DNA of 64,000 nt, taken from positions 997,001 through 1,061,000 of the forward strand of contig NZ_CP088273.1 in assembly GCF_020731415.2 (NCBI RefSeq). The letters are read 5' to 3'. Position numbers and translations under genes: made by a program. Each line of letters starts with the position of its first letter. The first letter of the stretch is position 1. This stretch comes from Phyllobacterium sp. T1293. GTDB lineage: Bacteria; Pseudomonadota; Alphaproteobacteria; Rhizobiales; Rhizobiaceae. The notes under the pieces are model-generated. The model searched no databases. It was not told where the DNA came from and saw only the letters and a list, made by a program, of their open reading frames with translations. Below are positions 29,808 through 30,928 of this stretch, piece after piece.

Positions 29808-30386
29808 ATGAAAACATCAGGCTTAGGGTTTTATCTTTCGCTGGTTCTGTTTACGGCGCTGTCAGGTTGGACAGGTTCTGCCGCTGCGCAAAGCTTCCGT
29901 GTCTGCCATGGCTATGGTTGTTACTTCCAAACGCCGGTGACGTTGACATCAGCCGATCGCAGCCGGATTGCCGCCATTATGGCAAATGGACGCAAATCAG
30001 CCGAAGCGGAGCGTGCTGCCATACGGCGTGCCGTGCAGGTGTTTGAGCTTCGCTCGACACAGGTGATTGGCGTGGCGGACCGTCCAAAGATGGAATTTGG
30101 CGAAGCACGGCAGAAAGGTCAGATGGATTGCGTGGATGAATCCACCAATACGGATCATTTCCTGCGCTATCTGCAAAGCGCCGGCCTGCTCCGGCACCAT
30201 AGTGTCAGCAGTCGTGAATCGCGCGGAAGCTTCATTGATGGCCGCTATCCGCATTTCGCAGCGGTGCTGCGCGACAAGTCAGGAACGCTCTGGGCCGTTG
30301 ACTCCTGGTATGAGCCAGCGGGCGGAAAACCTGACGTTATGCGTTTGGCTGAGTGGGAGGAGCGGGGTTTCAACAGCCAGAGGTAG
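29808..30386 (+). CDS. Exported protein with Cys-His-Asp pattern
   Basis: 192 residues. Signal peptide (LGFYLSLVLFTALSGW, cleavage near SAAAQ). The mature part has four cysteines; the most notable is in QMDCVDESTNT (about residue 106), followed by YPHFAAVLRD (His about 146) and LWAVDSWYEP (Asp about 162). That order and the 'H-x-xAV-x-x-xD-x-G-x-x-x-x-VD' pattern resemble transglutaminase/papain-like cysteine enzymes, but no family signature is certain. Likely periplasmic. No close ribosome binding site. I do not recognise a characterised homologue. Confidence 0.7.
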   Translation: MKTSGLGFYLSLVLFTALSGWTGSAAAQSFRVCHGYGCYFQTPVTLTSADRSRIAAIMANGRKSAEAERAAIRRAVQVFELRSTQVIGVADRPKMEFGEARQKGQMDCVDESTNTDHFLRYLQSAGLLRHHSVSSRESRGSFIDGRYPHFAAVLRDKSGTLWAVDSWYEPAGGKPDVMRLAEWEERGFNSQR

Positions 30387-30400
30387 GCCTGAAACAACAA

Positions 30401-30505
30401 CACCCACCGCGGGAGGAGGTGCGGTGGGTGCCGTTTGGTAAAGGCCGACTGGGAGGAGGAGTGCCGGCCTTTGATCGCGGAGGCTCTGGGAGGAGGATGA
30501 GCCTC
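30401..30505 (-). ncRNA. Anti-Shine-Dalgarno hairpin array (CcsR/cuckoo-like RNA)
   Basis: On the minus strand, directly after the DUF1127 gene, three stem-loops follow one another: 30480-30505 (stem GAGGCTC/GAGCCTC), 30440-30472 (stem AAAGGCCG/CGGCCTTT) and 30401-30430 (stem CACCCACCGC/GCGGTGGGTG). Each loop carries CUCCUCCC, complementary to Shine-Dalgarno sequences. The last is followed by TTGTTGTTT and can act as a terminator. CcsR RNAs of Rhodobacter sphaeroides and the alphaproteobacterial cuckoo family have the same loop motif and also lie downstream of DUF1127 genes. They are processed from the mRNA and act as small RNAs. That this locus behaves so is inference from structure and context. 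Confidence 0.8.
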
Positions 30506-30525
30506 GGCGATATTCTGTTATGCGA

Positions 30526-30672
30526 TTAGCGTACTGCAGACTTCTTGGCTACGAACGGGATGTCCGAGCGGGAGATGCCCAGATCGTTCAGTTCGCGGGT
30601 CGACAGACGGTTCAGCTCGGAAACCGTGTCACGATAACGGCGCCAGTTGCTGTAAGAGCGGATAAGGTTCAT
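30526..30672 (-). CDS. DUF1127 small basic protein
   Basis: 48 residues, arginine-rich, with the DUF1127 core SNWRRYRDTVSELNRLSTRE followed by LNDLGISRSDIPFVA. Some family members (for example CcaF1 of Rhodobacter) bind RNA and influence stress responses and sRNA maturation. ATG 30672 has GGTGA 5 bases upstream; ATG 30684 is an alternative adding four residues. The gene is followed at once by the anti-SD hairpin array on the same strand, the arrangement known from other alphaproteobacteria. Confidence 0.88.
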   Translation of the reverse strand: MNLIRSYSNWRRYRDTVSELNRLSTRELNDLGISRSDIPFVAKKSAVR

Positions 30673-30928
30673 TTCATTCACCATTCGGTTCAAATTGTTT
30701 CGTTGATCAGTCTTGATCGTTGAACTGAAGATAGTGGATGCCTTGCCGAATGTGCAGAGCCAAGTTTGCACGCCAGCTATGCGTATGTTGCATTGCATCA
30801 TTAATCGATTTTAATTGCTGCGTCGCACAATTGTCATCTTCATGGCTTTTTGCCCGAATCCGGCTGCAATTGCGTTTTCAATGAGGCTGTCGTTATTAGT
30901 GACACATCTCGAATCGGGAGCAGAAAGC

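What the first reader, a model, noticed from the sequence alone, without database searches (positions are those of the whole stretch)
30401..30672. Three CUCCUCCC-loop hairpins downstream of a DUF1127 gene
On the minus strand three consecutive stem-loops, each with a loop carrying CUCCUCCC (perfectly complementary to a Shine-Dalgarno core), follow a DUF1127 gene, and the last is followed by a T-rich tail. Stems differ in sequence (7, 8 and 10 perfect pairs) while loops are conserved, the mark of selection on the loop. The CcsR/cuckoo RNAs of Rhodobacter have the same loop motif and the same DUF1127 neighbour. Annotation pipelines rarely mark these. The three-hairpin array here may be processed into small RNAs that block ribosome binding sites under stress.
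Basis: partly seen in the sequence, partly recalled or inferred. Interest (0 to 1): 0.75.

Follow-up and report, generated by a model that had tools for sequence, protein, structure and literature searches.

The report
DUF1127 gene with ar14 small-RNA tail
Just downstream of a tiny protein gene, this Phyllobacterium-like bacterium carries a known kind of regulatory RNA: three hairpins whose loops match ribosome-binding sites, probably switched on together with the protein by a conserved regulator.

Summary
The minus strand at 30395-30515 is a full-length match to Rfam family ar14 (RF02344; 114.5 bits, cut-off 58.8). It has three hairpins with CUCCUCCC loops, folds far better than shuffles (z -8.3), and its stems covary: 18 of 37 pairs changed on both sides. 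It starts 10 nt after the stop of a 48-aa DUF1127 gene.

The arrangement is conserved. Of 80 loci fetched by the DUF1127 protein alone, 79 have the motif within 600 nt downstream; so do 49 of 59 best hits in a family-wide search.

This is a known kind: ar14 is the NfeR1 family, and DUF1127 plus CcsR-like RNA has been named the CIN1 locus (PMC10253847).

What I add: a published VtlR/LsrB box lies upstream of 67 of these 80 genes, against 33 of 1600 control stretches, and upstream of the window's gene. A likely VtlR/LsrB gene is in the genome. VtlR-activated DUF1127 genes may thus be dual transcripts, protein plus RNA. Phasin genes are a second recurrent host. Expression was not testable.

The parts
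30526..30672 (-). 48-aa DUF1127 protein gene (MNLIRSYSNWRRYRDT...)
   Evidence: Pfam PF06568, 60.9 bits against cut-off 23.3; 100% identical in Phyllobacterium myrsinacearum and P. calauticae
30395..30515 (-). ar14 small-RNA element, model positions 1-123 of 123
   Evidence: RF02344, 114.5 bits, gathering 58.8, E 1.9e-20; fold z -8.34
30474..30511 (-). hairpin 1, loop with CCUCCUCCC
   Evidence: 12 pairs; 11 of 12 pairs have a change on both sides in relatives
30440..30472 (-). hairpin 2, loop with CCUCCUCCC
   Evidence: 10 pairs; 3 of 10 with a change on both sides, 98.3% of cells paired
30396..30435 (-). hairpin 3, loop with CCUCCUCCC, followed by a moderately T-rich tail; probable terminator (inferred)
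   Evidence: 15 pairs; 100% of cells paired; 4 of 15 pairs with a change on both sides, each in a single sequence, L060 by the alignment
30770..30782 (-). VtlR/LsrB-type box GCAT-N3-TG-N3-T (GCATAGCTGGCGT)
   Evidence: Exact match to the box proposed for VtlR in PMC7486931; conserved in the alignment of upstream regions. The other published form, a Brucella 15-mer, scores 10 of 15 here and 11 of 15 at 30789-30803
30729..30734 (-). probable -10 element CTATCT
   Evidence: Present in 18 of 18 close relatives; CTATAT or TTATAT at the corresponding place in the alignments of two other groups. Not flagged by the simple promoter scan; start site not measured

Best explanation
This is a dual-output transcription unit. 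A VtlR/LsrB-type LysR regulator probably drives a promoter near 30729-30782(-). The transcript first encodes the 48-aa DUF1127 protein and ends in a 3'-UTR that folds into an ar14 RNA: three hairpins, each presenting CCUCCUCCC. The 3' part is probably cut off in the short spacer after the stop codon to give an RNA of about 120 nt. Its loops pair with purine-rich Shine-Dalgarno sequences of target mRNAs (transporters and catabolic genes) and block ribosome entry. Shown here: the sequence, fold, family membership, covariation, linkage and conserved promoter box. Inferred from NfeR1 and CcsR: expression, processing, trans-silencing. Inferred from VtlR/LsrB work: the activator.
For: RF02344 hit; z -8.3; covariation in 18 of 37 pairs, 0 of 500 shuffles reaching it, and pairing falls to 40-54% when partners are slid. 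DUF1127 linkage: 79 of 80 loci found by protein alone, 3 motifs in 911,472 background bases; 53 of 79 over-cut-off ar14 places have a DUF1127 ORF ending within 700 nt upstream, tandem units counted apart; 49 of 59 best DUF1127 hits from a family search. No promoter-like site between gene and array; the one found is at 30808-30837. VtlR box in 67 of 80 against 33 of 1600 controls, and in 36 of 59 against 18 of 628. Pyr_redox_2 C-terminus, LysR gene and ar15 in a row in this genome; the LysR matches PDB 9HH1 over its whole length, 481 bits, the A. tumefaciens LsrB structure. LsrB is an indispensable activator of NfeR1, the founding ar14 RNA, in S. meliloti, and NfeR1 silences ntrB by its aSD motifs (PMC10746234, abstract and passages). 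GGGAGGAG 3-9 nt before ATG: 19 pattern matches (18 sites) against 2 for the reversed pattern, among them solute-binding and ABC proteins, the MCH cyclohydrolase and a GlnE-type protein.
Against: No transcript data for this organism. The T-tract is weak and the promoter scan does not flag the proposed -10. The window matches the short VtlR consensus exactly but the 15-mer at no more than 11 of 15, a score that 59 of 800 control stretches also reach. 13 of the 80 loci and 23 of the 59 family hits lack the exact box; 10 of the 59 lack the motif downstream. PMC7143759 (passage) says that only one of six S. meliloti NfeR1 copies is reliably detected in tested conditions, so some copies may be quiet. 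PMC10746234 (passage) holds its NfeR1 promoter architecture to be restricted to plant symbionts, and PMC7486931 (passage) found no LsrB control of AbcR in S. meliloti, so the wiring differs by lineage. The trxB neighbour was recognised only from a generic domain (Pyr_redox_2).
Confidence: 0.8

Rival explanations
1. A CcsR-type locus in the strict sense: RpoH-driven, cut by RNase E with help of the DUF1127 protein (like CcaF1) into several separate stress RNAs, one per hairpin or pair.
For: Same order of parts and same loop motif; the CcsR1 model gives a sub-threshold match over hairpins 1-2 (32.7 bits, E 9.8e-6). CcaF1/CcsR facts: PMC10253847 and PMC8625941 (passages).
Against: Below the CcsR1 cut-off of 65.3 while ar14 is far over its own; the conserved upstream element is a VtlR-type box. 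RpoH patterns were not tested.
Confidence: 0.15
2. The hairpins serve mainly in cis: terminator and 3'-end protection of the DUF1127 mRNA, with no trans targets.
For: Hairpin 3 ends the unit, and the array follows DUF1127 so often.
Against: In the 26-sequence alignment the CTCCTCCC letters of all three loops are invariant apart from one inserted C in L062, while hairpin 1 drifts; ar14 copies without a DUF1127 neighbour exist (L003, L004); ar14 targets are validated in S. meliloti (PMC10746234, passages).
Confidence: 0.07
3. A chance cluster of C-rich repeats in GC-rich DNA.
For: Motif count in the window is not extreme (3 of 100 shuffles reach 4).
Against: Rfam E 1.9e-20, fold z -8.3, covariation, linkage in 79 of 80 relatives.
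Confidence: 0.005

Closest known systems
ar14 / NfeR1 (Rfam RF02344; Smr14C2 of Sinorhizobium meliloti)
   Same: Three hairpins, CCUCCUCCC in each loop, variable stems, full-length model match; LsrB/VtlR-like box upstream
   Different: NfeR1 is described as having its own sigma-70 promoter (PMC10746234, passage); here the element directly follows a DUF1127 ORF with no promoter-like site found in between
CIN1 locus / cuckoo RNAs; CcaF1-CcsR1-4 of Rhodobacter sphaeroides
   Same: Short DUF1127 gene followed by aSD-loop hairpins
   Different: Not over the CcsR1 cut-off; 48-aa instead of 71-aa protein; VtlR-type box upstream, where an RpoHI/HII promoter is reported for ccaF1 (PMC10253847, figure legend)
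VtlR-activated small DUF1127 genes of Brucella and Agrobacterium (BAB1_0914, BAB2_0512, BAB2_0574; atu1667, an ortholog)
   Same: Short DUF1127 gene, published VtlR box upstream
   Different: In the passages that I read those genes are treated as small proteins, and for atu1667 the authors leave open protein or RNA (PMC7486931); an ar14 tail is not mentioned there. I did not see the sequence of atu1667 or of the B. abortus genes

Membership tests
ar14 (RF02344) | Covariance-model score over Rfam's gathering score | tested here: met
   114.5 against 58.8, positions 1-123 of 123
ar14 (RF02344) | Three hairpins each with the aSD motif in the loop, stems variable but paired | tested here: met
   stem 3 varies little
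ar14 (RF02344) | Expressed as an RNA of about 115-123 nt that silences mRNAs at the SD | not testable with these tools
   No transcript data; known for NfeR1 (PMC10746234, PMC8844928, passages)
CIN1 / cuckoo locus | Short DUF1127 gene associated with CcsR-like aSD hairpins | tested here: met
   definition from a passage of PMC10253847, the original paper (PMC4615179) is not held
CcsR1 (RF02791) | Covariance-model score over gathering score | tested here: not met
   32.7 against 65.3
CcsR1 (RF02791) | RpoHI/HII-type promoter | not tested
   No RpoH pattern was run; the conserved element found is VtlR-type
VtlR/LsrB regulon | Published box GCAT-N3-TG-N3-T in the promoter | tested here: met
   30770-30782(-), exact
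VtlR/LsrB regulon | 15-bp Brucella form CAATGCAGCCATGCA | tested here: inconclusive
   Best match 11 of 15 upstream of the window's gene; 59 of 800 control stretches score 11 or more
VtlR/LsrB regulon | Loss of expression without VtlR | not testable with these tools
   Needs a mutant

The most novel reading that the evidence does not exclude
The small DUF1127 genes directly activated by VtlR/LsrB across the family are dual-function transcripts whose 3'-UTR is an ar14 anti-SD RNA. VtlR/LsrB would then control ribosome-binding-site silencing through one shared box set on stand-alone ar14 genes (already shown for NfeR1), AbcR genes and DUF1127-ar14 genes, and part of the phenotypes credited to the small proteins would come from the RNA. 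No paper in the held library contains both 'DUF1127' and 'NfeR1' (occurrence counts of its 11 papers), but the cuckoo paper itself and the first Brucella VtlR papers were not read.
Probability: 0.55. Interest if true: 0.55.

Novelty: new member of a known kind. Interest (0 to 1): 0.36.

Why it matters
The element itself is a further copy of a described RNA family. The useful part is the junction of two literatures: VtlR/LsrB-activated DUF1127 'small proteins' and the LsrB-activated NfeR1/ar14 anti-SD RNAs look like the two halves of one transcript. That makes an open question in print testable, namely whether the VtlR-controlled gene atu1667 acts as a protein or as an RNA (PMC7486931, passage). 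It also warns that deleting or overexpressing such a gene with its 3'-UTR may change an sRNA too.

Tried and rejected
Motif count alone as evidence (not extreme). CcsR1 membership (fails the cut-off). The 6C and mir-72 matches (27.6 and 18.4 bits against cut-offs of 47 and 60; taken as chance). The fourth CTCCTCCC at 30355 (not at that place in L036, L037, L106). The pattern TGCA-N6-GCAT as the general box: found in 23 of 80 upstream regions, 18 of them the window's closest relatives, so I used the published boxes instead. A uORF-type attenuator for the DUF1127 gene at L165: its upstream CTCCTCCC is in an unremarkable fold (z -1.05), so dropped. (58-sequence alignment: the window, L002 and 56 of the 64 references) mixed three- and four-hairpin arrays and was not used for pair counts. 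The counts use 26 three-hairpin sequences that I picked by eye, 24 of them distinct. In one search, 3 of the 82 over-cut-off places were not fetched. One search scored at most 16 candidates per genome with strict filters, so it misses weak copies. Of the 18 sites, 13 proteins were scanned and 5 were not.

Full report
WHAT IS THERE. On the minus strand a 48-codon DUF1127 gene (30672-30526; PF06568, 60.9 bits) is followed after 10 nt by an element that Rfam's ar14 model covers from end to end (30515-30395; 114.5 bits, gathering 58.8, E 1.9e-20). Its three hairpins (30511-30474, 30472-30440, 30435-30396) all carry CUCCUCCC in the loop. The fold is -62 kcal/mol against -32.5 +/- 3.5 for 200 shuffles, z -8.3. 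CcsR1 is a second, sub-threshold hit (32.7 of 65.3). The window is Phyllobacterium or very close: the DUF1127 protein is 100% identical in P. myrsinacearum, P. calauticae and Phyllobacterium sp. OV277.

STRUCTURE UNDER SELECTION. In 26 three-hairpin relatives chosen by eye (24 distinct), 97.7% of pair cells are standard pairs, 18 of 37 pairs show a change on both sides, and 0 of 500 shuffles reach any of the five measures. Sliding the partners by 1-3 columns drops pairing to 40-54%. RNAalifold on the same alignment finds the same 37 pairs. Hairpin 1 covaries most (11 of 12 pairs). Hairpin 2 has 3 of 10. Hairpin 3 is nearly constant: its four double-changed pairs are each seen in one sequence, so it is supported mainly by conservation. 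Limits named by the tool: control (a) ignores relatedness, and the structure was taken from the window's own fold, which favours it over the slid versions.

LINKAGE TO DUF1127. Three counts. (i) 80 loci fetched by the DUF1127 protein alone (best 80 of 294 relatives found): 79 have CTCCTCCC within 600 nt downstream (miss: L051); background 3 in 911,472 bases. (ii) From the RNA side, searched 199 genomes of the order: 66 match at E <= 0.001 and 34 are over the cut-off. Of the 82 over-cut-off places I fetched 79, and 53 have a DUF1127 ORF ending between 10 nt inside and 700 nt upstream on the same strand; tandem units count apart. (iii) Family search with the protein: 59 of 61 genomes match, from 58 of 60 genera. 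The best hit of each has the motif within 600 nt downstream in 49 of 59, two or more copies in 44 (L229 and L221 hold only 59 and 297 nt of downstream sequence). Background there is higher, 55 in 263,205 bases, probably in part because arrays extend beyond 600 nt. The link is specific to a subset of DUF1127 genes: in the window's own genome 2 of 11 DUF1127 genes have the motif downstream in the 1.5 kb examined.

COPIES IN THE OWN GENOME. Five ar14 places, all over the cut-off: the window; L002, also after DUF1127 (12 nt); L003 and L004, with no DUF1127 gene near; and L005, 20 nt after the stop of a phasin gene (PF09361, 63.4 bits).

PROMOTER AND LIKELY REGULATOR. Upstream regions, aligned in three groups of 19, 12 and 18 sequences, share a block close to GCA-W-AGC-W-G-N3-TGCAAACTTG followed by CTATCT, CTATAT or TTATAT. 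I tested two published VtlR boxes that were not derived from my data. GCAT-N3-TG-N3-T (PMC7486931, passage): 67 of 80 upstream regions of 160 nt against 33 of 1600 control stretches; the window's copy is exact at 30782-30770. For ar14 places without DUF1127: 13 of 26 against 15 of 520. Family-wide: 36 of 59 regions of 180 nt against 18 of 628. The 15-mer CAATGCAGCCATGCA (PMC12595884, passage): 56 of 80 score 12 or more against 11 of 800 controls, 33 of 80 score 13 or more against 0 of 800; for ar14 places without DUF1127, 10 of 26 score 12 or more against 0 of 260. The window itself reaches only 11, and not at the same spot; 59 of 800 controls also reach 11. In the own genome 32 sites lie within 2 mismatches of the 15-mer (5 for the backwards control). 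Four of the 32 sit just upstream of an ar15 gene, L003, a short DUF1127 gene at 2394399, and L002's DUF1127 gene; the window's promoter is not among them. The regulator is probably present: a Pyr_redox_2 C-terminus of trxB type, a LysR gene, then ar15, in that order. The LysR matches PDB 9HH1 over its whole length with 481 bits; the depositing paper fits an LsrB model there. That ar15 corresponds to AbcR rests on the names smrC15/AbcR2 and smrC16/AbcR1 in PMC7143759. Positions relative to a start site are inference.

HOW IT MOST LIKELY WORKS. Shown: parts, fold, covariation, linkage, box. Inferred: co-transcription (no promoter-like site between gene and array; the scan finds one only at 30808-30837, 0.5 expected by chance), cutting in the spacer, and silencing by loop pairing to SD sequences as reported for NfeR1 (PMC10746234, passages; review PMC7143759, passage). 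As a plausibility check, GGGAGGAG placed 3-9 nt before ATG occurs 19 times in the genome against 2 for the reversed pattern; two rows are the same site read with two ATGs (L180, L181). Several open frames are short and may not be genes. The 13 scanned proteins are an ABC ATPase, two solute-binding proteins, a DctP protein, a TPP enzyme, the MCH cyclohydrolase, a transthyretin/HIUase, an AMP-binding enzyme, an alcohol-dehydrogenase-type enzyme, a cupin, a GlnE-type protein, a GAF/Fis regulator and an AHSA1-type protein. This shows candidates, not regulation; a strong SD is also simply a strong SD.

WHAT IS KNOWN. ar14 = NfeR1 family: three aSD hairpins, redundant loops, Hfq-independent; LsrB is an indispensable activator and NtrC a repressor of NfeR1; ntrB is silenced (PMC10746234, abstract and passages). 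That paper considers its promoter architecture restricted to plant symbionts. Six copies in S. meliloti, one reliably detected (PMC7143759, passages). DUF1127 plus CcsR-like RNAs = CIN1 locus; CcaF1 binds RNA and takes part with RNase E in CcsR maturation (PMC10253847, PMC8625941, passages). DUF1127 proteins may instead act on PhoR (PMC12501420, passages). VtlR activates AbcR2 and three DUF1127 genes in Brucella (PMC12595884, passages), and abcR1, atu1667 and VrsA in A. tumefaciens (PMC7486931, outline, passages and two sections); there it is stated to be unknown whether atu1667 acts as protein or RNA. The founding cuckoo and ar14 papers (PMC4615179, PMC3346310) are not held, and Robledo 2017, Sheehan 2015, Budnick 2018 and Grutzner 2021 were seen only as citations; any of them may already state the VtlR-ar14 link.

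VERDICT. A real, conserved RNA element, correctly spotted; a new member of a known kind. Moderate added interest from the shared VtlR/LsrB box and from the dual-transcript reading.

Noticed in passing
L005 (G000:C1:2339020-2339135); L139, L149, L151, L153: ar14 copies 20 to 81 nt downstream of a phasin gene (Phasin_2 confirmed for L005 and L139, the others by similarity), 5 of the 26 places without DUF1127, in the window's genome and in four genomes of one other genus: a second recurrent 3' home for this RNA. One paper search listed 7 papers; the phasin passage of PMC7143759 concerns another RNA, MmgR, and PMC4633059 was not read.
   Followed up: partly
L121, L123, L124, L125: In one genus two DUF1127 genes are followed by two or three tandem ar14 units, up to nine hairpins; four motifs instead of three follow DUF1127 in many Brucella/Ochrobactrum loci.
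   Followed up: no
L017, L018, L021: ar14 copies 160-184 nt after a uvrA-like gene (recognised by eye, recalled, no family search), each with a VtlR-type box upstream.
   Followed up: no
G000:C1:2670345-2670494 (L184): A DctP-type solute-binding gene with a perfect GGGAGGAG ribosome site also has a VtlR-like 15-mer (2 mismatches) about 120 nt upstream: possible feed-forward target, may be chance.
   Followed up: no
L165 (G000:C1:2394399): A third short DUF1127 gene of this genome has a VtlR-like 15-mer upstream (13 of 15) but no ar14 array downstream; the L003 ar14 copy lies 3.7 kb away on the same strand.
   Followed up: partly
window 29808-30386 (+): A 192-aa protein gene, secreted by the look of its N-terminus (by eye), without Pfam or NCBIfam match at E 0.001, converges on the array; 8 nt separate its stop from the end of the ar14 match, so hairpin 3 may serve as a two-way terminator.
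   Followed up: no
L092, L095, L058: Records titled Bacillus subtilis SK6B4 and a Xylophilus MAG carry DUF1127 loci whose protein is identical to that of Pseudochrobactrum or Brucella pseudogrignonensis loci: probably mislabelled or contaminated assemblies.
   Followed up: no
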